Shown here in pieces: positions 13,411 to 47,053 of a stretch of 64,000 bases of DNA. A program made the position numbers and the translations under genes. The notes under the pieces were generated by a model. The model saw only the letters and a program-made list of their open reading frames with translations, searched no databases and had not been told where the DNA came from. How positions within the stretch are numbered: position 1 is the stretch's first letter; each line of letters opens with the position of its first letter. The DNA lies in assembly GCF_001553625.1 (NCBI RefSeq), contig NZ_CP014230.1:1922001-1986000 (forward strand), given 5' to 3'. The DNA is from Desulfomicrobium orale DSM 12838. GTDB taxonomy: Bacteria > Desulfobacterota > Desulfovibrionia > Desulfovibrionales > Desulfomicrobiaceae.

Positions 13411-14670
13411 CATTGCTGTCCGGCTAAGCGATGCAATCTAACAGTGTGAAGTTATATGAATTATCGAATTTTCGTCGTCTGGGATTCAGGAGTTCATCCA
13501 AGGAGGCCTCGCCGAGCAGGTTGAGTTGAATGAGCTGGAAGAGTTGCTGTACGGAGAGTCCGAGACGGCTGAGGAATTTCTGGTACGCGAGGAGCAGGTA
13601 AACCGTCAGGGCCGTGTAAATCTGGATCAGAACCGCATTTTCCGAGTTGCCGACGAAGGTCTTTATGCGCAAATTTTGTTTGATTTCCTTGAAGAAGAGC
13701 TCGATTTGCCAGCGGTCTTTATAGATGTCGGCGATGGTTTTCGCCGAAAGCCGGAAATGGTTGGTCAAAAATTCGTAGTGTTTCCCGGTTTCCTGGTCAC
13801 GATAGCCGATACGGCGCAAGCGTAAGGATTTTCCCCGGCTGGAGACTTCAATGATGTGATCGGAAGTAACGCCGGTCTTGCGATTCACGAGGCGGCGCTC
13901 CAGGAGTTTGAAAACGGCGTTGCGCTTGAGCCGGGTCACAAAAAAGACACCCTTTGCCCCGAGGATCCGAAACCAGGGATAGCTGATGAAGCCCTTGTCA
14001 AAGACCACGATGGAGCCCCTGGGCAACTCCATAGCCTGAGCTATGCGGCTTTCATGGGTTTTGGCGTCGGTGACGGTTGCGAAAGCCGGGATATGGCCAT
14101 CGTGATCCAGCAAGGTATGTACTTTGACGCCGCCCTTGGCCTGCCGAAACGAGGCCCAGGGAAAAAGCGACAGGCAAAGCTTTATGGTGGTGGCGTCCAG
14201 ACTGAACAATTTGGATTTGAAACGGAATTTGTGCTTCGGGGCTTTTGCGGCGCACAGGCCGTACATCTCGGCGAACAGATCCTTGAAAAAGCCTACGGGG
14301 CGAGAATTGTTCGCGTCAGCAAAGGTCGAGCGGGCCACGTTTTTCAGTCCCCAGTGATACAGGCGGTTTCCCGCAGCCTCAAGGCAGCGCAGGCCATCGC
14401 GCATGGAACGTCTTGCGGCAAGCTGGATGAAGGCCATGACCGTGAACTGCTCCTTGAAACCGAATTGACGCGACGAGCGCCCGGTTTTGTGCCGTCTTTC
14501 GAGTTTCTGAAAAACATGTCTGGGAATCAGAGATAGCGTCTGGGAGAATAGTGTATTATGGTGACTCAAGTCCAGAATCTCCTTGTGTGGCAAGATGTTG
14601 TGGTGATTTCTTTTACCACACATCGCTGAGATTTTGGACTCTTTTCTTATCCCTTAGCCGGACAGCAATG
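13411..14670 (-). mobile_element. IS4-family element, copy 1
   Basis: A complete 1,260-bp element bounded by perfect 18-base inverted repeats, CATTGCTGTCCGGCTAAG and its complement. It is flanked by a perfect 9-bp target duplication AATCATTAT at 13402-13410 and 14671-14679. A nearly identical copy of the same length lies at 45555-46814. The right duplication contains the first bases of the ABC transporter start codon. Confidence 0.95.
13424..14623 (-). CDS. IS4-family transposase, copy 1
   Basis: A 399-residue DDE transposase. The first aspartate lies in FSLDATTIKL, the second in VVFDKGFISY, and the IS4 signature Y-(2)-R-(3)-E-(6)-K is seen as YKDRWQIELFFKEIK. The protein differs from copy 2 only near the C-terminus (FTLLDCIA against FKLLDYIA). 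It appears intact. Confidence 0.95.
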   Translation of the reverse strand: MCGKRNHHNILPHKEILDLSHHNTLFSQTLSLIPRHVFQKLERRHKTGRSSRQFGFKEQFTVMAFIQLAARRSMRDGLRCLEAAGNRLYHWGLKNVARSTFADANNSRPVGFFKDLFAEMYGLCAAKAPKHKFRFKSKLFSLDATTIKLCLSLFPWASFRQAKGGVKVHTLLDHDGHIPAFATVTDAKTHESRIAQAMELPRGSIVVFDKGFISYPWFRILGAKGVFFVTRLKRNAVFKLLERRLVNRKTGVTSDHIIEVSSRGKSLRLRRIGYRDQETGKHYEFLTNHFRLSAKTIADIYKDRWQIELFFKEIKQNLRIKTFVGNSENAVLIQIYTALTVYLLLAYQKFLSRLGLSVQQLFQLIQLNLLGEASLDELLNPRRRKFDNSYNFTLLDCIA

Positions 14671-14677
14671 AATCATT

Positions 14678-16414
14678 ATGAGAAATTTTTTTATCACAAT
14701 AAAAAGAGCTAAACAAATATTTCTATTTTCGACTTGTATTATTCTTATTGTGTCGACAACACTATTGAGTATATTATTGGCTGACGCATTGAGCCCGATT
14801 ATCAACGCGGCAATGAATGGGGCGTGGATTTTGAGGAATATCTTGGTATATTCGGGGATATGCTTGGCTTTGATTATATTTTCTATGTTACGTCAATATA
14901 GTATTGGTTTATTTTCCGCAAACATAGAAAAAAACATGTATAATTTAGCTATTAAAATGATAAATGATAAAAAAATTTATTATGTTATAACAAAAAACAC
15001 AGGATTCTTTGCATCAATTATTCATAATGATCTGAAGCAAGTATGTCGGTTTTTAAGTAATGAATTTTACTTATTAATTTATCAACCGATATTGATTATC
15101 GGGTCAACTATTTTTTTGTATGTGAAAAATGCATCACTAACAATAATTCTTATTTTAATTGTTTTATTGAGTATGTTCATTGGATATTTTAAAGGTAAGA
15201 ATATAAAAAAATATAGTTTTTTAGTACAGAAATCACAGGAAAAAATGATGTCATTTCATAAAGAAGTTTTTTCCTGTGCAGAAGAGATCGGTATGTTAAG
15301 CTGTTTTAATTATGTTGCCAATAGATATGAATATCTGAATGAAAATTTAATGCGAAATGAAATACAACGTGATCGTATAATTGCGTTTTACTCAATACCA
15401 TCTATGGTGAATGAATATTTCCCATTAGTCATGACAATAATATTAGGAGGGTATTATGTTTATGAAAATAGGTTAAGCTATGGTGATTTTGCTGTTTTTA
15501 TACAAATATTAACTTATTTAAGTCTTCCTTCGAGTAAATATGCCTCTGCATTGATTTCCTTTAGGTCTACACAGGTTTCTTTGGATCGTTTTTTGTCCCT
15601 TGATGATCAATCCGAAAAAGATTTTGACGTTGATGATGTGGGTAAAAAGGAAAATAATATTCCTGACTTACAAAAAAATTCTTCTCTTTTATTTGAAAAC
15701 GTCAGTTTTTCTTATGATGGTTCTAATCCTGTGTTAAACGATATATCTTTTGAGCTTAAGACGGGTGAGAAGGCTGTGATTGTTGGCCCATCTGGTTGTG
15801 GGAAAAGCACACTGCTCCGACTCGCTATGGGCTTTTATCCAGATTATTCTGGGATTATCCAGATCGGAGGGTGTAATTTTAAAGAATTTAACCTTGCAAC
15901 TATGCGCAAAAATATAGCTTTTGTGGATCAGAATTTTTATATACTGCCCGGTACTGTTAGCTTTAATATCACTGCCGGGCAATTTTCTGATATAAATCAA
16001 AATTATGAAGCCATCATCAAATGTGCTAAAGATGTAGGTTTGGATCAATTTATACAAAATGAACTATCCAATGGATATAATGAGATACTCTATCAGAAAG
16101 GTGTAAATTTGTCAGGAGGGCAAAAAGCAAAGCTTTCTATTGCCAGAGCTTTATATAGAAATACGCCTATTATTTTTTTTGATGAAATAACTTCCTCTTT
16201 GGATGCTGAAAGCGAAAAGATTATCAATGATCTTATTAGTACTTATGAAAATAAGACTATTTTAGCTATATCTCATCGCGTATCGACGATTTCAGCCTAT
16301 GACAAAATCCTTGTCCTTAATGAAAAAGGTCAGCTTTGTGAGAGTGGATCGTTTGATGAATTGTTGAGAGAGGGGATAGTGTTCAAAAAGATTTATTTTG
16401 ATATGCAGGCCTAG
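14678..16414 (+). CDS. ABC exporter half-transporter 1 (TMD-NBD), AT-rich
   Basis: A 578-residue inner-membrane protein with about six membrane segments in the first 310 residues and a C-terminal ATPase. Walker A GPSGCGKST is near 370, the signature LSGGQKAKL near 478, Walker B IIFFDEITSSLD near 499 and the switch histidine in ISHR, all canonical. It belongs to the exporter-type superfamily that includes peptide, lipid and YbtP/Q-like metallophore transporters. The partner starts 6 bases after its stop, so they form a heterodimer. Base composition is far more AT-rich than the surroundings, implying transfer. The start ATG overlaps the IS4 target duplication and no Shine-Dalgarno is left upstream. 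Substrate is unknown. Confidence 0.87.
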   Translation: MRNFFITIKRAKQIFLFSTCIILIVSTTLLSILLADALSPIINAAMNGAWILRNILVYSGICLALIIFSMLRQYSIGLFSANIEKNMYNLAIKMINDKKIYYVITKNTGFFASIIHNDLKQVCRFLSNEFYLLIYQPILIIGSTIFLYVKNASLTIILILIVLLSMFIGYFKGKNIKKYSFLVQKSQEKMMSFHKEVFSCAEEIGMLSCFNYVANRYEYLNENLMRNEIQRDRIIAFYSIPSMVNEYFPLVMTIILGGYYVYENRLSYGDFAVFIQILTYLSLPSSKYASALISFRSTQVSLDRFLSLDDQSEKDFDVDDVGKKENNIPDLQKNSSLLFENVSFSYDGSNPVLNDISFELKTGEKAVIVGPSGCGKSTLLRLAMGFYPDYSGIIQIGGCNFKEFNLATMRKNIAFVDQNFYILPGTVSFNITAGQFSDINQNYEAIIKCAKDVGLDQFIQNELSNGYNEILYQKGVNLSGGQKAKLSIARALYRNTPIIFFDEITSSLDAESEKIINDLISTYENKTILAISHRVSTISAYDKILVLNEKGQLCESGSFDELLREGIVFKKIYFDMQA

Positions 16415-16420
16415 AGTGCA

Positions 16421-18079
16421 ATGTTGATGGAAAAGAAAAGAGGTTTTTTTTCATTTCTTTTTGCTATAACTAAAGAAAAATTAGGTTTATGGCTGGTTGC
16501 TGCTATTCTTAATTCTCTACAGACATTTTTAGTGACTGTTTTTTATGGGTTTGCACTAAAATATACTCTTGATGGAATAAGTAGTGGTAATGAGACTGAG
16601 TTTAAAATTGGCGTAATAATTATGCTGATAGGCTCATGCTATTTTATTTTTGGACTTCCATTCTTTAGCTATCTTTTGTACAAAAGTATGAGTATGGTCA
16701 AGAGTAAAATACGGCAAAATATTTTTAAAAGAATAGTTACATTTAAATACTCTGATATAGAATATACTCATTCTGGTAAATATTTATCGATTATGCATAA
16801 TGATATAGATAGAATAATGAATCTTTTTGACTGGTCATTTATAGGCATGCTGCAAGCGATTATATCTGGGATATTTTCTATATTTATAATATTTTATTAT
16901 AGTAAAATAATAGTATTTGTATCTTTAATTTCTGGAATTATACTTTTATACTTAAGTTTTATTAATTTGAAAATAAATAAACACCTTAATGAACAACTTT
17001 ATGAGCATTTTTCAGAACGTATGAAGCTCACAGCTGATTTTGTTGATAATTTTATTCTTATAAAAATATACGATATTGTAAGTGTAATAACTTCTTCTAT
17101 ATATGATTTATGTCAGAGTATATATCATTGCCAGGTATCAATTAATAAATTTGGGGTTGTTTTAAATTCCTTAAAGTCGGTTATAACAGAATTGATATTG
17201 TTTGGTGTCGTAATTTTTATTGGTAGCTATCAGATAGCTCAAGGTGATCTCACTTTTGGTGAGCTTATGCTTATTCTGCAACTCGGAGTAGGAATTGTTT
17301 TTTTCTTTAATTCAATAGGTAACTATTTTATATCGACCCAATATTCATTTCTCTGCTTGGAGCGGGTGTATAATGAATGTATGCGCGTGGTGGTTGAAGA
17401 AAAGCACGCTATTTTAACTAAAAAAACACAAGCAAGTCTGGAGTTTGAGCAAGTGACTTTTGGGTATGACAGCCGAGGGCAAAAAGTTTTGGATAATATC
17501 TCATTTTGCCTCGAAGGACCGGCAATCGTCAATCTTACAGGGAAAAATGGCACGGGTAAGAGCACAATTTTTAAATTAATTATGAAACTTTATTCTCCTC
17601 AAAGCGGGACAATAAAAATAAATGGAGTTGATATACAAAATGTCTCCCAAGAAAATATTTCAAAAATTGTGGCTTGTGTTCCACAGAAAATTATCTTCTT
17701 TGAAGATACGATTTATAATAATCTAACTTATGGTTTATCTATAAGTGAATTAGAATTGGAGAGTATTGCTGAATCAGTAGGTATATTAGAACTTATTGAT
17801 AGTTTTCCAAATAGATTTGAAGAAATTCTTTTTGAGGGTGGATATGAACTTTCCGGAGGAGAAAAACAGAGATTGGCATTGGTGAGAGCCTTGGCGCAGC
17901 ATCCAGATATTCTATTACTCGATGAGTTTGATTCAAATATGGATCCCTTATCCGCTCAAAAAATATATAATTATTTAAATAGTAATAATATATTGGCAGT
18001 TATTGTGACGCATAATATGGAAAATATTCTAAAGTCCAGTATTGTTTCGGGGAAAAAATATACTGAAATTTCTCTGTAG
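16421..18079 (+). CDS. ABC exporter half-transporter 2 (TMD-NBD), AT-rich
   Basis: A 552-residue partner of the preceding protein, with about six membrane segments and an ATPase domain. Walker A GKNGTGKST is near 373, signature LSGGEKQRL near 477, Walker B ILLLDEFDSNMD near 498 and the switch histidine in VTHN. Both ATP sites of the pair look competent, unlike many heterodimeric exporters with one degenerate site. ATG 16421 or 16427 could be the start. No peptidase domain, precursor peptide, or TonB receptor is seen nearby, so the cargo cannot be inferred. dsbD converges on it 48 bases downstream. Confidence 0.86.
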   Translation: MLMEKKRGFFSFLFAITKEKLGLWLVAAILNSLQTFLVTVFYGFALKYTLDGISSGNETEFKIGVIIMLIGSCYFIFGLPFFSYLLYKSMSMVKSKIRQNIFKRIVTFKYSDIEYTHSGKYLSIMHNDIDRIMNLFDWSFIGMLQAIISGIFSIFIIFYYSKIIVFVSLISGIILLYLSFINLKINKHLNEQLYEHFSERMKLTADFVDNFILIKIYDIVSVITSSIYDLCQSIYHCQVSINKFGVVLNSLKSVITELILFGVVIFIGSYQIAQGDLTFGELMLILQLGVGIVFFFNSIGNYFISTQYSFLCLERVYNECMRVVVEEKHAILTKKTQASLEFEQVTFGYDSRGQKVLDNISFCLEGPAIVNLTGKNGTGKSTIFKLIMKLYSPQSGTIKINGVDIQNVSQENISKIVACVPQKIIFFEDTIYNNLTYGLSISELELESIAESVGILELIDSFPNRFEEILFEGGYELSGGEKQRLALVRALAQHPDILLLDEFDSNMDPLSAQKIYNYLNSNNILAVIVTHNMENILKSSIVSGKKYTEISL

Positions 18080-41713: not shown

Positions 41714-43897
41714 ATGGACTCCTTCCTCTCCATTCAGGGGGAAGTGGTCAGTGTGGTCTACGAGAACCCCGAAAACGGCTACGTCATCGCCCGGCTGCTG
41801 GTACCCTCGGAGCCCGGCCAGACCACGGTCGTCGGCGTATTGGGTTCCGTGGCTCCCGGAGAATCCCTGCGTCTTACCGGCGAATGGACCGAACATCCGA
41901 AGTTCGGCCGGCAGTTCAAGGCCGAAACCTGCGAGCATGTGCTGCCCGCGTCCCTGAACGGCATCCGCCGTTTTCTGGAGTCCGGCGCGGTGAAGGGCAT
42001 AGGCGGGAAAATCGCCGAGCGTCTGGTCAGCCGCTTCGGCAGCCAGGTGCTGGATATTCTGGATACGGACCCGGACCGTCTGCTGGAAGTGGACGGCATC
42101 GGCCCGTCCAAGCTGAAGACCATCCTGACCTCCTGGCGGGAAAAGCGGGAAGTGCGCGGGCTCATGCTCTTTCTGCAGACCCACGGGGTGGCCACCACCT
42201 TCGCTCATCGGATTTTCCGCCAATACGGCGTGAATGCCGTGCAGCGCCTGCGCGCCAATCCGTATGATCTGGCCTACGACATCCATGGCATAGGTTTTCG
42301 CACCGCCGACGACATGGCCCTCAAGCTCGGTTTCGCCGAGGACGCGCCCCAGCGGCTGGAAGCGGGGGTGGAGTATTGTCTGCGCCAGACCGCCGAAAGC
42401 GCCGGGCACATGTTTCTGCCCCGTCCCATGCTGGCCGAGGAGGCGGCCCGGCTGCTCGGATGCCATGACCTGGAACTTGTGGAAGAGCGGATTGACGCCC
42501 TGGTGGAGCGCAAGCGTCTGGTGGCGGAGCCTGCCGACGGCGGGGAAAACGTGTTTCTGATATATTTCTGGCGGACCGAGCGGGAAATTGCCTCCCGGCT
42601 GCACGCTCTGCGCGAGCACGCAAGCCGGCTCGCTCCGGACAGGATTGCCGCCGCCGTGGAGCGGGAGGAAGAGCGGCTTGCCCTCAGCCTGTCGGCCGAA
42701 CAGCGGCAGGCCGTGGAGTCGGCCTGCGGGGAAAAGGTGGCCATCATCACCGGCGGACCCGGCACGGGCAAGACCACCATCACCCGCGTGGTGGTTCGCG
42801 CCCTGAAGGCTCTGGGCCTGCGCATCGGCCTGGCCGCGCCCACGGGCCGGGCGGCCAAGCGTCTGTCCGAGGCCACGGGGTTCACGGCCGTCACCCTGCA
42901 CCGGCTGCTGCGTTTCCAGCCGGGCACGGGCTTCGAGTTCGGCGAGGAAAAAAAACTCTCGCTGGACGCTCTGGTGGTGGACGAGGTTTCCATGCTGGAC
43001 AGCGGCCTGTGTCTGGCGCTGCTGCGGGCTCTGCCCCTGACCTGCCGCCTTGTTTTTGTGGGCGATGAAAATCAGCTGCCGTCCGTGGGTGCGGGAAACA
43101 TTCTGGGGGACATGCTGGAGAGCGGAAGCATTCCGGCCGTGCGCCTGACTCATATCTACCGTCAGGCCAGGGAAAGCATGATCGTGCTCAACGCCCACCG
43201 CATCAATCAGGGCGAATTTCCGCAGGGCAGCCCCCATGCTCCGCCCAGGGCCGATTTTTTCTGGGTGGAAAAGGAACACCTGGGCGAGTTGCAGAGCCTC
43301 ATCCTGCGCATGGTCTGCGAGCGCATCCCCGAAGCCTACGGACTTGATCCCATGACGGATGTGCAGGTGCTCACGCCCATGCACAGGGGCGAGGTCGGCA
43401 CCATTGCCCTGAACCGGCTTTTGCAGGAGCACCTCAACCCCGAGGGCCGGGAACTGACGCGCGGCCAGCGCGCCTACCGGATCGGGGACCGCGTGCTGCA
43501 ACTGCGTAACAACTACGACAAGGATGTCTTCAACGGCGACCTGGGCCGCATCGTGGGGTTCGACACGCAGGACGAAACCTTGACCGCCGAATTCGACGGC
43601 CGCGAGATAGAGTACGCCTTCGACGAACTGGACGAGATCGGGTTGGCCTACGCCATCAGCGTGCATAAGAGCCAGGGCAGCGAATACCCGGCCGTGGTCA
43701 TGCCCGTGGTCACGCAGCATTACATGCTGCTTCAGCGGAATCTCATCTACACCGGACTGACCAGAGCCAGAAAGCTGGCCGTGCTGCTGGGGTCACGCCG
43801 GGCCATGCATATGGGATTGGGAAACGAGCGCGGCCGGCGGCGTTATACCACTTTGGCCGCGCGGCTGAGAGAGTCGGATTTTATAGAAAATATATAG
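41714..43897 (+). CDS. recD2: RecD2-type ATP-dependent DNA helicase
   Basis: A 727-residue SF1B 5'-3' helicase of the RecD2 group, acting without RecBC in repair. The N-terminal OB-like and helix-hairpin-helix region (about 1-150) includes GIGGKIAERLVSRFG, Walker A GGPGTGKTT is near 347, VVDEVSMLD is Walker B, and AISVHKSQGSEYPAVV with LIYTGLTRARK close the motor. Length is normal. Start ATG 41714 follows the recR stop by two bases. Confidence 0.93.
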   Translation: MDSFLSIQGEVVSVVYENPENGYVIARLLVPSEPGQTTVVGVLGSVAPGESLRLTGEWTEHPKFGRQFKAETCEHVLPASLNGIRRFLESGAVKGIGGKIAERLVSRFGSQVLDILDTDPDRLLEVDGIGPSKLKTILTSWREKREVRGLMLFLQTHGVATTFAHRIFRQYGVNAVQRLRANPYDLAYDIHGIGFRTADDMALKLGFAEDAPQRLEAGVEYCLRQTAESAGHMFLPRPMLAEEAARLLGCHDLELVEERIDALVERKRLVAEPADGGENVFLIYFWRTEREIASRLHALREHASRLAPDRIAAAVEREEERLALSLSAEQRQAVESACGEKVAIITGGPGTGKTTITRVVVRALKALGLRIGLAAPTGRAAKRLSEATGFTAVTLHRLLRFQPGTGFEFGEEKKLSLDALVVDEVSMLDSGLCLALLRALPLTCRLVFVGDENQLPSVGAGNILGDMLESGSIPAVRLTHIYRQARESMIVLNAHRINQGEFPQGSPHAPPRADFFWVEKEHLGELQSLILRMVCERIPEAYGLDPMTDVQVLTPMHRGEVGTIALNRLLQEHLNPEGRELTRGQRAYRIGDRVLQLRNNYDKDVFNGDLGRIVGFDTQDETLTAEFDGREIEYAFDELDEIGLAYAISVHKSQGSEYPAVVMPVVTQHYMLLQRNLIYTGLTRARKLAVLLGSRRAMHMGLGNERGRRRYTTLAARLRESDFIENI

Positions 43898-44131
43898 GAG
43901 TCCTGCGCTGCGGAAGAAAAAGATAGAAAGCGCCGTAATTCTGGGGCAAAATATGGTGAATCCCAGCATGCAGGGAAGCGGCAGAGGTATCCGTTTTTTC
44001 TTTGTCTCCGGGGTGGCCGTGCATGGGGCGATATCCTGAAGTAAGTATCAGATGAATTGTGGAGGAATTTTTGTGTCGTGCATGTAATCAAAGATATTTT
44101 TACTGATCATAAATCAAGACTTCCTATTTCC

Positions 44132-44824
44132 TATGGCATAAGTATTGACGTATATACATTCCAATCACTTGACCATTTACAGCAACTTTCTCTGGATAAA
44201 TTAAAACGTCGGAAATTTGGATCGCCATTATCAGAAAGCCATGGCCATCCTGTTGAGTATTCTTTAATAATAATAAGATCTTCATTATTTTTTACATCTC
44301 TATATATATATCTTCACTGACCATCCTAAAGTATATATCTCTATAATAATTATAACAATGTATAAACTTATTTCCATATATATATAATTTATATTTATGT
44401 CCATTATATTCAATATTTTCACGAATAGACTCTTTATATTGTATTGACTTGATATAAGTTTTATTTTTTGACTGAAGTGCTTCATATATATCCGGATTTT
44501 CTCTTTTCCATTCTTCGAGAGGCTTGAGTATTTTTCCGCCAGATTCGAATTGGCAATAATAAGTATAAATTATCTGGGCAGGAATATATTCCCAGAAGGC
44601 GAGAGCGAAAAATGCAAAAAAGACAGCAAATCCGGACCAGAATGCCTGTCTCTTTGTATACCCTTTTCTGATCATTCTTCTATACGTGTATCGCGTACAG
44701 AAACGCCATATATAGAAGTATATCACACAGAACATCATTAAGGACAGACCAAGCATAATTTACTCTTTCTGTTTGATGTTAATCATTCATAGACAAGTTA
44801 ATCATTGGCAGAATAACTTTTGTT
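44132..44824. repeat. Tandem duplication, unit 1 (about 690 bp)
   Basis: From TATGGCATAAGTATTGAC to GGCAGAATAACTT the sequence recurs at 44904-45554 continued at 46824-46868 after the IS4 element. Each unit holds one small minus-strand membrane protein gene plus a conserved tail. Similarity is near-complete except in the part coding the last 50 residues of each protein. The unit is AT-rich relative to the genome. The 234 bases between recD2 and the unit hold no supported gene. Confidence 0.85.
44292..44756 (-). CDS. Small membrane protein of duplicated cassette, copy 1
   Basis: A 154-residue protein with two hydrophobic segments (about 2-20 and 38-66) and a C-terminal soluble region from residue 70. 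The N-terminal 105 residues are almost identical to those of the copy at 45058-45531, while the last 50 diverge (SIQYKESIRENIEYNGHKYKLYIYGNKF here). The shared frame EYNG-KY--I-GNKFI is kept, so both are real genes under divergence. No family is recognised; a role as immunity or accessory protein is only a guess. Confidence 0.65.
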   Translation of the reverse strand: MLGLSLMMFCVIYFYIWRFCTRYTYRRMIRKGYTKRQAFWSGFAVFFAFFALAFWEYIPAQIIYTYYCQFESGGKILKPLEEWKRENPDIYEALQSKNKTYIKSIQYKESIRENIEYNGHKYKLYIYGNKFIHCYNYYRDIYFRMVSEDIYIEM

Positions 44825-44903
44825 ATGGTATTATGAATTATTAAAAATTATTTTCTACATAACTTTACAGTCTTTGAGATAGAGAACATAAAACATATGT
44901 TAT

Positions 44904-45554
44904 TTATGGCATAAGTATTGACCTATATGCATTCCAATCACTTGACCATTTACAGCAACTTTCTCTGGATAAATTAAAATACCGGAAATTTGGATCGCCA
45001 TTATCAGAAAGCCATGGCCATCCTGTTGAATATTCTTTAATAATAAGAAGATCGTTATTATTTTTTACATCTTTGTATATATATATACTCCTTAATCATT
45101 TTAAAATATATATTTCTATAATAGCTGTATCTATTAATAAATTTATTCCCTGAAATAGATAAATGATATTTCTTTCCATTATATTCAATTAGTCCAAAAC
45201 GATATGGCTTGACCTTTATCGATTCGATATAAGTTTTATTTTTTGATTGAAGTGCTTCATATATATCCGGATTTTCTCTTTTCCATTCTTCGAGAGGTTT
45301 GAGTATTTTTCCGCCAGATTCGAATTGGCAATAATAAGTATAAATTATCTGGGCAGGAATATATTCCCAGAAGGCGAGAGCGAAAAATGCAAAAAAGACA
45401 GCAAATCCGGACCAGAATGCCTGTCTCTTTGTATACCCTTTTCTGATCATTCTTCTATACATGTATCGCGTACAGAAACGCCATATATAGAAGTATATTA
45501 TACAGAATGCCATTAAAGCCAGACCAAGCATAATTTACTCTTTCTGTTTGATGT
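44904..45554. repeat. Tandem duplication, unit 2 (interrupted by IS4)
   Basis: Second copy of unit 1. It is split at 45554 by the IS4 element; the rest of the unit continues at 46824-46868 after one copy of the 9-bp target GTTTGATGT. The duplication thus predates the insertion. Confidence 0.85.
45058..45531 (-). CDS. Small membrane protein of duplicated cassette, copy 2
   Basis: A 157-residue paralogue of the preceding protein, with the same two hydrophobic segments and charged motif YRRMIRKGYTKRQAFWSGF. Its C-terminal part (SIKVKPYRFGLIEYNGKKYHLSISGNKF) differs and ends IYIQRCKK. The IS4 element begins 24 bases upstream of its ATG, which removes its native promoter, so expression now depends on a shifted or IS-borne promoter. 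Confidence 0.65.
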   Translation of the reverse strand: MLGLALMAFCIIYFYIWRFCTRYMYRRMIRKGYTKRQAFWSGFAVFFAFFALAFWEYIPAQIIYTYYCQFESGGKILKPLEEWKRENPDIYEALQSKNKTYIESIKVKPYRFGLIEYNGKKYHLSISGNKFINRYSYYRNIYFKMIKEYIYIQRCKK

Positions 45555-46814
45555 CATTGCTGTCCGGCTAAGGGATAAGAAAAGAGTCCAAAATCTCAGC
45601 GATGTGTGGTAAAAGAAATCACCACAACATCTTGCCACACAAGGAGATTCTGGACTTGAGTCACCATAATACACTATTCTCCCAGACGCTATCTCTGATT
45701 CCCAGACATGTTTTTCAGAAACTCGAAAGACGGCACAAAACCGGGCGCTCGTCGCGTCAATTCGGTTTCAAGGAGCAGTTCACGGTCATGGCCTTCATCC
45801 AGCTTGCCGCAAGACGTTCCATGCGCGATGGCCTGCGCTGCCTTGAGGCTGCGGGAAACCGCCTGTATCACTGGGGACTGAAAAACGTGGCCCGCTCGAC
45901 CTTTGCTGACGCGAACAATTCTCGCCCCGTAGGCTTTTTCAAGGATCTGTTCGCCGAGATGTACGGCCTGTGCGCCGCAAAAGCCCCGAAGCACAAATTC
46001 CGTTTCAAATCCAAATTGTTCAGTCTGGACGCCACCACCATAAAGCTTTGCCTGTCGCTTTTTCCCTGGGCCTCGTTTCGGCAGGCCAAGGGCGGCGTCA
46101 AAGTACATACCTTGCTGGATCACGATGGCCATATCCCGGCTTTCGCAACCGTCACCGACGCCAAAACCCATGAAAGCCGCATAGCTCAGGCTATGGAGTT
46201 GCCCAGGGGCTCCATCGTGGTCTTTGACAAGGGCTTCATCAGCTATCCCTGGTTTCGGATCCTCGGGGCAAAGGGTGTCTTTTTTGTGACCCGGCTCAAG
46301 CGCAACGCCGTTTTCAAACTCCTGGAGCGCCGCCTCGTGAATCGCAAGACCGGCGTTACTTCCGATCACATCATTGAAGTCTCCAGCCGGGGAAAATCCT
46401 TACGCTTGCGCCGTATCGGCTATCGTGACCAGGAAACCGGGAAACACTACGAATTTTTGACCAACCATTTCCGGCTTTCGGCGAAAACCATCGCCGACAT
46501 CTATAAAGACCGCTGGCAAATCGAGCTCTTCTTCAAGGAAATCAAACAAAATTTGCGCATAAAGACCTTCGTCGGCAACTCGGAAAACGCTGTCCTGATC
46601 CAGATTTACACGGCCCTGACGGTTTACCTGCTCCTCGCGTACCAGAAATTCCTCAGCCGTCTCGGACTCTCCGTACAGCAACTCTTCCAGCTCATTCAAC
46701 TCAACCTGCTCGGCGAGGCCTCCTTGGATGAACTCCTGAATCCCAGACGACGAAAATTCGATAATTCATATAACTTCAAACTGTTAGATTACATCGCTTA
46801 GCCGGACAGCAATG
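45555..46814 (+). mobile_element. IS4-family element, copy 2
   Basis: A complete 1,260-bp element with perfect 18-base inverted repeats, flanked by a perfect 9-bp target duplication GTTTGATGT (45546-45554 and 46815-46823). It is inserted into the upstream region of the second duplicated membrane protein gene. It is almost identical to copy 1 at 13411-14670, with a small cluster of synonymous changes near 46585-46595. Confidence 0.95.
45602..46801 (+). CDS. IS4-family transposase, copy 2
   Basis: A 399-residue DDE transposase with the YKDRWQIELFFKEIK signature and aspartates in FSLDATTIKL and VVFDKGFISY. It differs from copy 1 at only a few C-terminal residues and appears intact. Confidence 0.95.
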   Translation: MCGKRNHHNILPHKEILDLSHHNTLFSQTLSLIPRHVFQKLERRHKTGRSSRQFGFKEQFTVMAFIQLAARRSMRDGLRCLEAAGNRLYHWGLKNVARSTFADANNSRPVGFFKDLFAEMYGLCAAKAPKHKFRFKSKLFSLDATTIKLCLSLFPWASFRQAKGGVKVHTLLDHDGHIPAFATVTDAKTHESRIAQAMELPRGSIVVFDKGFISYPWFRILGAKGVFFVTRLKRNAVFKLLERRLVNRKTGVTSDHIIEVSSRGKSLRLRRIGYRDQETGKHYEFLTNHFRLSAKTIADIYKDRWQIELFFKEIKQNLRIKTFVGNSENAVLIQIYTALTVYLLLAYQKFLSRLGLSVQQLFQLIQLNLLGEASLDELLNPRRRKFDNSYNFKLLDYIA

Positions 46815-47053
46815 GTTTGATGTTAATCATTCATAGACAATTTAATCATTGGCAGAATAACTTCTGTTGCTGATTCTGGGTATTGTGACTTAACAACATA
46901 CCCATACTTCGGCTTTCGTCTGAATGGCGAATATTTCTTCGGAGGTATCCGATAAGTCTTGCCAAGGAAATAGCCGGATTACATCCCTTAGGGATTTCGC
47001 ATCTCTTGGCTGGCGGCAGAAGTGGAGGGACAGGCTCTTCCGGAGCCGCCCTT

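What the first reader, a model, noticed from the sequence alone, without database searches (positions are those of the whole stretch)
44132..46868. Tandem mosaic cassettes: constant membrane part, variable C-terminal part
Two AT-rich units of about 690 bp encode membrane proteins with almost identical first 105 residues and flanks, but different last 50 residues. Similarity is high on both sides of the variable part, which fits local recombination or diversifying selection, as in immunity, defence or receptor genes. No family was recognised. This is the best candidate for an undescribed system in the window.
Basis: partly seen in the sequence, partly recalled or inferred. Interest (0 to 1): 0.58.

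Follow-up and report, generated by a model that had tools for sequence, protein, structure and literature searches.

The report
Broken immunity genes against RTX lipases
Two damaged look-alike genes in a Desulfovibrio-type bacterium belong to an undescribed family of membrane proteins that probably protect bacteria from their own secreted fat-cutting toxins, and in relatives the matching specificity parts of protector and toxin appear to be swapped together as one piece of DNA.

Summary
Two ~690-bp AT-rich units (32% GC) encode two-helix membrane proteins whose DNA is 94% identical outside, but 66% inside, a 140-nt block (permutation p 0.0005). Missed: a 1.26-kb IS with a 9-bp target duplication splits the second unit, and both ORFs (154/157 aa) stop early relative to a ~200-aa family, next to a TA tract, in different frames. 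They are probably relics of orphan copies.

The family has no Pfam, NCBIfam, PHROGs, PADLOC or PDB match. One scan gave 28 loci, mostly proteobacterial and desulfuromonad MAGs; in 22 the gene sits directly before a lipase (GHSLG, lipase-class-3 fold), long ones carrying RTX repeats; 3 more keep only the toxin's start. In the window's own genome a 236-aa paralog overlaps such a lipase gene, broken by IS copies.

In three independent pairs one ~450-480-nt variable block runs from immunity residue 86-95 across the gene border to toxin residue 46-49, both sides conserved. Immunity C-halves co-vary with toxin residues 19-49, not with the lipase body. Best reading: membrane immunity proteins against type-I-secreted lipases, with a two-gene specificity cassette. 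Function is inferred, not shown.

The parts
44292..44756 (-). unit 1 ORF (154 aa): two-helix membrane N-part plus the first part of the C-terminal domain; truncated relative to the ~200-aa family
   Evidence: matches profile positions 1-129 of ~197
45058..45531 (-). unit 2 ORF (157 aa), same family; N-part near-identical to unit 1
   Evidence: profile positions 1-130; tblastn to the 236-aa paralog E 1e-11
44312..44451 (-). variable block of unit 1
   Evidence: 66% identity inside vs 94% outside, permutation p 0.0005
45085..45226 (-). variable block of unit 2
44301..44311 (-). TA tract (11 nt) in unit 1 at the break between ORF and conserved tail
45076..45087 (-). TA tract (12 nt) in unit 2 at the same break, in a different phase
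44131..44298 (-). conserved tail of unit 1: 55-codon frame, probably the former C-terminus (weak profile support)
   Evidence: profile score above all 200 shuffles
44904..45071 (-). conserved tail of unit 2, same 55-codon frame
   Evidence: beaten by 4 of 200 shuffles, so weak
44771..44824 (-). 54-nt upstream repeat of unit 1
   Evidence: family D4, 96%
46815..46868 (-). 54-nt upstream repeat of unit 2, cut off from its gene by the IS
45555..46814 (+). IS4-type insertion sequence (transposase 45602-46801) with terminal inverted repeats and 9-bp target duplication gtttgatgt
   Evidence: 30 matches of at least 96% over the whole query in the own genome
43876..43993 (-). relic of the 5' end of a gene like the 236-aa paralog, just after the recD-like gene's stop
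   Evidence: 118 nt at 82% identity, E 2e-31; tblastn 68% over 44 aa, E 3e-13

Best explanation
The two genes are decayed, probably orphan copies of a family of inner-membrane immunity proteins that guard against antibacterial lipases exported by type I secretion. In intact family members two N-terminal helices anchor the protein and the C-terminal half (about residues 88-200, beta-rich, with a conserved Cys before it and one near its end) would lie in the periplasm and neutralise the cognate lipase by binding at or near its N-terminal ~50 residues. The immunity gene lies directly upstream of the lipase gene, so its variable 3' half touches the toxin's variable 5' end. Recombination between the conserved immunity motif (YKTPEQWKxENPG, ~74-86) and the conserved toxin motif (FSxxQAxxFVxxW, ~47-59) then replaces both partners' specificity regions at once. 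Shown: the family, the gene order, the lipase motif and modelled lipase fold, the RTX repeats of long members, the two-sided variable block, the co-variation, the truncation of the window copies. Inferred: export of each lipase, toxicity to bacteria, neutralisation, periplasmic side, binding site, orphan status.
For: 28 loci from one scan of the species-genome collection. In 22 of 28 a lipase profile match of at least 88 positions follows directly; 3 of 28 (L024, L025, L044) keep only 23-36 positions of the toxin start (L044 at a contig end); 3 of 28 have none (L019 at a contig end, L030, L037). Spacing is -4 nt in 15 of 28. GHSLG in 17 of the 20 toxin ORFs examined, the other three being short. 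Long toxins carry RTX repeats. Exporter genes tested upstream: ABC exporter in L025 and L032, HlyD in L032. Toxin model: lipase/phospholipase A1 fold, Z about 15, rmsd 3-4, ~210-230 aligned; nearest by Foldseek is a T6SS lipase effector in complex with its immunity protein, 9cys, E 3e-5; the profile also hits that effector by sequence, E 2e-4. Two-sided block: L034a/b immunity aa 86 to toxin aa 47 (45% inside, 84% outside), L021a/L020 aa 95 to 49 (45/89), L027/L029 aa 88 to 46 (45/77). Immunity C-half vs toxin aa 19-49: partial Mantel rho 0.31, p 0.001 (21 gene pairs), 0.37, p 0.0005 (17 pairs after dropping four close ones); immunity C-half vs lipase body -0.06 and -0.04. First Cys (C65) invariant and second (C178) at least 90% conserved in the 30 rows. 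Immunity ORFs without a full toxin stay open: L024, L025, L030, and L037 as far as its contig shows.
Against: No experiment, and no toxicity or protection data for any member. Co-variation can come from physical linkage alone, without binding; the immunity N-half also correlates with toxin aa 19-49 (rho 0.40; 0.26 in the reduced set). The window copies have no toxin and their tail matches the family's C-terminus only weakly (unit 1 beats 200 of 200 shuffles, unit 2 only 196 of 200), so the short ORFs could be complete. Classical RTX lipases (Serratia LipA, Pseudomonas MIS38) share the fold (Z about 14) and are not known to me as antibacterial. The own genome has no RTX match, and its one HlyD-type gene over the cut-off sits beside an adhesin-like ORF.
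Confidence: 0.7

Rival explanations
1. The membrane protein is a lipase-specific chaperone, foldase or secretion helper, translationally coupled to the lipase, and not an immunity protein.
For: Strict upstream position with -4 spacing in 15 of 28 loci; membrane anchoring as in Lif foldases (recalled); an immunity protein that also activates its lipase is reported for E. cloacae Tli/Tle (PMC10294624 abstract start in a listing; PMC11470151 passages).
Against: Open copies are kept without a toxin (L030, L037) or with only its start (L024, L025); tandem copies; a highly variable half is odd for a helper of conserved lipases; type-I substrates fold after export (established knowledge, recalled).
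Confidence: 0.15
2. The two window genes are simply dead duplicates in an IS-rich AT island; the mosaic is a by-product of decay plus gene conversion and has no function now.
For: Both ORFs truncated, IS in front of one, relic of a third gene beside them; tail changes 2 synonymous to 10 non-synonymous; toxin gene elsewhere in the genome broken by IS copies.
Against: N-parts still show dN/dS about 0.25 (6.2 synonymous, 6.8 non-synonymous changes; few events). This rival concerns the window copies only and is compatible with the best explanation for the family; I think it likely for the copies themselves.
Confidence: 0.6
3. The TA tracts are phase-variation switches that turn the C-terminal half on and off.
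For: Both copies break at a TA tract and are in different phases.
Against: The DNA is AT-rich with many TA runs (6 tracts of 6 nt or more in unit 1 and 5 in unit 2 up to the break); a further frame break in a relative (L038) lies in the same region without a TA tract; no strain comparison or reads available.
Confidence: 0.12
4. The pairs are surface or nutritional lipases with an accessory membrane anchor, varied by phage or host pressure and not by toxin-immunity matching.
For: Fold shared with secreted RTX lipases; cadherin and Ig-like repeats in long members.
Against: The variable region of the secreted protein is a short N-terminal stretch that tracks the membrane partner and not the lipase body; repeated immunity-toxin units with truncated toxins.
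Confidence: 0.12

Closest known systems
FrpD/FrpC of Neisseria meningitidis and Smlt3025/Smlt3024 of Stenotrophomonas
   Same: frpDC operon; a membrane (lipo)protein binds the N-terminal domain of a type-I-secreted RTX protein (Kd ~0.2 nM; PMC5233953 abstract and start of the introduction); FrpC/FrpD was proposed as an antibacterial effector-immunity pair (PMC6759196 passages)
   Different: FrpD is an outer-membrane lipoprotein; FrpC's N-domain is not described as a lipase in what I read; no two-gene variable block was described in the passages I read; no FrpD match appeared in my fold rows, which does not exclude one
T6SS lipase effector Tle and immunity Tli of Enterobacter cloacae (9cys, 7ubz)
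   Same: phospholipase of the same general fold (Foldseek E 3e-5; sequence profile E 2e-4), immunity lipoprotein in the periplasm
   Different: delivered by T6SS; no RTX repeats (recalled); Tli is a lipoprotein, not a two-helix membrane protein
CDI (CdiA-CT/CdiI), Rhs and other polymorphic toxin systems
   Same: variable toxin-immunity cassettes behind conserved parts, stand-alone copies (PMC3482391 abstract start, and passages; PMC4927057 and PMC11630599 abstract starts; the comparison of cassettes partly recalled)
   Different: there the variable toxin part is C-terminal and the immunity gene follows (recalled for the gene order); here the immunity gene comes first and the variable toxin part is N-terminal
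Caulobacter Cdz (type-I-exported, contact-dependent bacteriocin with immunity)
   Same: type I secretion used against bacteria, with an immunity protein (PMC5380434, abstract start in listings; the rest recalled)
   Different: glycine-zipper proteins, not lipases
Family I.3 RTX lipases (Serratia LipA 2qua, Pseudomonas MIS38 2zvd)
   Same: fold; Z about 14; RTX repeats (recalled)
   Different: ~615 aa, no such upstream membrane partner (recalled)

Membership tests
Window genes: members of the ~200-aa membrane family found here | profile similarity over the two-helix N-part and FW(D/E)xIP...YYC...EWKxEN motif | tested here: met
   profile positions 1-129/130, E about 1e-40; the profile included both window rows. 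Independent: tblastn of the paralog E 1e-11
Window genes: members of the ~200-aa membrane family found here | complete C-terminal half with second conserved Cys | tested here: not met
   ORFs end at profile position ~130; tail is in another frame; tail homology weak
Polymorphic toxin-immunity systems | immunity gene adjacent to toxin gene | tested here: met
   22 of 28 relative loci plus the own-genome paralog; not met for the two window copies
Polymorphic toxin-immunity systems | variable toxin/immunity parts behind conserved parts, by recombination | tested here: met
   three pairs with sharp two-sided blocks
Polymorphic toxin-immunity systems | toxin kills, immunity protects only against its own toxin | not testable with these tools
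   needs experiment
Type I secreted RTX proteins | RTX repeats in the long toxins | tested here: met
   PF00353 in L017, L021, L018a, L033, L034, L022; L018b lacks it within its ORF
Type I secreted RTX proteins | neighbouring ABC exporter and HlyD | tested here: met
   only L025 (ABC) and L032 (ABC, HlyD) of 28 loci tested by profile
Lipase class 3 / fungal-type lipase fold | GxSxG nucleophile elbow and alpha/beta-hydrolase fold | tested here: met
   GHSLGGHL invariant in the 20 aligned rows; Z 13-15 to lipases
FrpD-like immunity fold | structural similarity to FrpD or Smlt3025 | tested here: inconclusive
   no Foldseek match below E 0.2 for the immunity model and neither protein in the rows shown
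T6SS Tle/Tli | T6SS delivery | not tested
   long toxins have RTX repeats instead; T6SS genes were not looked for
Anti-phage defence | match to a defence profile | tested here: not met
   no PADLOC match at E 0.01 for window unit 2, a relative and its lipase

The most novel reading that the evidence does not exclude
A two-gene specificity cassette: a ~450-480-nt stretch made of the 3' half of an immunity gene and the first ~47 codons of the adjoining type-I-exported lipase toxin is exchanged as one unit between conserved anchors, so a single recombination tract installs a new matched toxin-immunity specificity without touching the catalytic domain, the RTX export domain or the membrane anchor. 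If so, immunity acts by gripping a non-catalytic N-terminal specificity segment of the lipase.
Probability: 0.6. Interest if true: 0.78.

Novelty: new variant of a known kind. Interest (0 to 1): 0.62.

Why it matters
How toxin-immunity pairs change specificity without a suicidal mismatched intermediate is a standing problem. Here gene order offers a simple solution that can be tested directly: the two specificity parts abut, so one recombination event can replace both. It would also strengthen the case that type I secretion delivers antibacterial enzymes, so far proposed for FrpC (PMC6759196, passages) and described for a Caulobacter bacteriocin of glycine-zipper proteins (PMC5380434, listing). 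Finally it gives a place to a family that four profile libraries and PDB do not recognise.

Tried and rejected
Known families: Pfam, NCBIfam, PHROGs and PADLOC gave nothing above cut-offs for the membrane proteins tested. A weak Pfam hit for the 44124-44285 frame (YPEB, E 2e-4, below its cut-off) lies in a frame that unit 1 enters only after its stop; set aside as chance.

Phage or plasmid origin: tblastn of the 236-aa paralog gave no match in plasmids or phages; two viral-contig scans gave no relative. Absence holds for those collections only.

Close relatives: 2 of 22 family-level genomes and 2 of 348 class-level genomes match, the own genome being one of them both times, so strain-level comparison of the variable part was impossible.

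Positive selection in the variable block: rejected as the main cause (dS 1.8, dN 0.34), with the caution that dS is near saturation.

Fold of the membrane protein: pLDDT 90, but no PDB chain at Foldseek E <= 0.001; one VIA row at Z 5.2 (51 aligned, rmsd 4.2, helices only), then 4.1. Absence of a match does not show a new fold. The model was built from a relative (L018), not from the window proteins.

Programmed frameshift or phase variation: kept as a minor rival; L038 also breaks in the same region without a TA tract.

Selections: in the Mantel tests I used 21 immunity-toxin pairs of those found; partial, contig-cut or toxin-less members were left out, and a second run dropped L034b, L018a, L020 and L029. 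The three block pairs were chosen for high N-half identity; other pairs examined: L021a/L021b, L021b/L020, L040a/b and L018a/b show a better conserved N-half or central motif but no sharp boundary, and L017/L018 is milder. The L027/L029 toxins also vary elsewhere. L033's toxin start is uncertain. The family alignment for the profile left out L019, L037 and L038.

Literature: ten searches. None listed a paper that I could recognise as describing this pair of families, judging by listings only; 'not in print' is limited to these searches of an open-access library. Papers opened: PMC6759196 (passages), PMC5233953 (outline with abstract and start of introduction), PMC11470151 (passages), PMC3482391 (passages). 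All other papers named were seen in listings only.
Full report
What is in the window. Two minus-strand units lie between a recD-like helicase gene (ends at 43897) and a phosphate-type transporter cluster (the labels of these two neighbours are my reading of the ORFs, not a profile result). They sit in a 32-33% GC island in a region of about 62% GC. The ORFs are 154 and 157 aa. Their DNA is 94% identical outside and 66% inside one 140-nt block, a contrast that no permutation of 2000 reached.

Two corrections matter. First, the right half of the interval is an insertion sequence: transposase 45602-46801 with DDE_Tnp_1 and DUF4372 domains, inverted ends and a 9-bp direct repeat. The search with this element returned 33 matches in the own genome, 30 of them at 96% or more over the whole query. 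It lies about 23 bp before the start codon of unit 2. Second, both proteins end early. They match only positions 1-130 of a ~197-position family profile. The conserved DNA behind the stops holds a 55-codon frame shared by both copies, but unit 1 and unit 2 arrive at it in two different wrong frames, at TA tracts of 11 and 12 nt. The tail resembles the family C-terminus only weakly: the unit 1 piece scores above all 200 shuffles of itself, while the unit 2 piece is beaten by 4 of those 200. I therefore call the truncation likely rather than proven.

Rates. N-part (codons 1-105): dS 0.11, dN 0.03. Variable part (codons 106-147): dS 1.8, dN 0.34. Tail in its 55-codon frame: 2 synonymous and 10 non-synonymous changes. 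The variable block is thus old or imported sequence between recently shared or homogenised flanks; it is not a hot spot of amino-acid-changing mutations. The tail no longer looks constrained, which fits decay.

The clue to function lies elsewhere in the same genome. A 236-aa paralog (39% identity) ends over the start codon of an ORF that begins like a lipase and is broken off. The rest of that lipase, with GHSLGGH, follows after a copy of the same IS, and another copy follows it. A piece of the lipase's later part lies at 761 kb, again beside the IS. No RTX match remains in the genome. One HlyD-type gene over its family cut-off exists at 711 kb, next to an ABC transporter and not far from a repeat-rich, adhesin-like ORF (the adhesin label is my reading). 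In the window itself, a 118-nt stretch at 82% identity to the paralog's 5' end survives close behind the helicase stop codon. No toxin profile match occurs in the window. The bacterium is unnamed; a genome of the same genus (G010) carries the same 165-aa relative as a contig titled Desulfovibrionales bacterium.

The family. A single scan of species genomes gave 28 loci, chiefly Betaproteobacteria, Gammaproteobacteria and Desulfuromonadales/Desulfovibrionales metagenome assemblies by record title. Because the scan used short peptide patterns, 28 is a lower bound. Members are about 190-219 aa: helix 2-30, helices 35-50 and 54-67, then a beta-rich C-half (model pLDDT 90). The K/R-rich stretch between the first two helices suggests that both ends face the periplasm (inference). 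One Cys just after the membrane part is invariant and one near the C-terminus is at least 90% conserved in the 30 aligned rows, as expected for a periplasmic disulfide (inference).

Neighbours. 22 of 28 loci have a lipase profile match of at least 88 positions directly downstream, 3 have only the toxin's first 23-36 profile positions, 3 have none, one of them at a contig end. The spacing is -4 nt in 15 of 28. GHSLG occurs in 17 of 20 toxin ORFs examined; the three without it are short. Long toxins have RTX repeats and sometimes cadherin- or Ig-like repeats. Upstream exporters were confirmed by profile in the two loci tested. The toxin model (pLDDT 85) has the fungal-lipase/phospholipase A1 fold (Z 13-15), and its best Foldseek hit is a T6SS lipase effector solved with its immunity protein (9cys, E 3e-5).

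The mosaic is a family trait. In L034 (one contig), L020/L021 (one Gallionellaceae assembly) and L027/L029 (two Burkholderiales assemblies), the immunity N-half is 85-95% identical and the C-half 27-43%. Reading on across the gene border, the difference continues into the toxin and stops at residue 46-49, after which the toxins are again similar: 93% in L034 and 91% in L020/L021, 73% in L027/L029. A block search on DNA put the edges at immunity residue 86, 95 and 88 and toxin residue 47, 49 and 46. In L034 the toxin DNA right after the block is 95-100% identical for some 600 nt, so relaxed selection cannot explain the 45% inside the block; replacement can. Across 21 immunity-toxin pairs, similarity of the immunity C-half follows similarity of toxin residues 19-49 even after controlling for both conserved parts (rho 0.31, p 0.001; 0.37, p 0.0005 in 17 pairs), but does not follow the lipase body. 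L028 and L039, from different taxa, share more in the immunity C-half (65%) than in the N-half (55%) or lipase body (44%), as expected if C-halves move between backgrounds.

Mechanism. Best reading: immunity against a type-I-exported antibacterial lipase, with specificity in a two-gene cassette. Linkage alone could give the co-variation, so binding is inferred. The main rival is a helper or activator role; the Tli/Tle case shows that one protein can do both. Immunity ORFs that remain open without a toxin or with only its start (L024, L025, L030, L037) favour immunity. For the window copies themselves, decay is likely: they are relics of orphan copies. In them the variable block lies inside the same C-terminal domain, though its edges (about residues 102-148) are not those of the full cassette.

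Relation to known systems. The nearest functional analogue is FrpD/FrpC: a membrane lipoprotein that binds the N-terminal domain of a type-I-secreted RTX protein, proposed as immunity and effector by the Stenotrophomonas study. The nearest toxin structure by Foldseek is the T6SS lipase Tle. The general class is polymorphic toxin systems, in which the classical variable part is the toxin's C-terminus (abstract start; passages); here it is the N-terminus and the immunity gene comes first. I rate this a new variant of a known kind.

Noticed in passing
window 13424-18079: A second AT-rich island (30% GC) holds two adjacent ABC exporter-like genes (578 and 552 aa) with a further copy of the same insertion sequence directly before them; it looks like acquired DNA, perhaps a peptide exporter. 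Labels are by eye and from an exporter tblastn match.
   Followed up: partly
G000:C1:759-763 kb (L057:7746-9441): Next to a fragment 92% identical to the lipase's later part lies a 251-aa ORF with an N-terminal hydrophobic stretch and no Pfam match; possibly another immunity-like gene.
   Followed up: partly
L018:5421-7980: A second, much diverged immunity-lipase pair stands directly before the first; the two lipases are 22-52% identical over their first ~350 residues but up to 88% in a later stretch, which suggests recombination there too.
   Followed up: partly
L020:9448-12189, L022:802-2225, L038:9848-11298: Other membrane proteins of about 190 aa precede more distant lipases of the same profile, which points to a wider set of immunity families for these toxins.
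   Followed up: no
L038:7986-8581: The immunity gene of this Thiodiazotropha contig is also split by a frameshift at about profile position 121-124, close to where the window copies break, without a TA tract.
   Followed up: partly
G000 whole genome: About 30 near-identical full copies of one IS4-type element in a 2.78-Mb genome; several sit in or beside the lipase and immunity loci.
   Followed up: no
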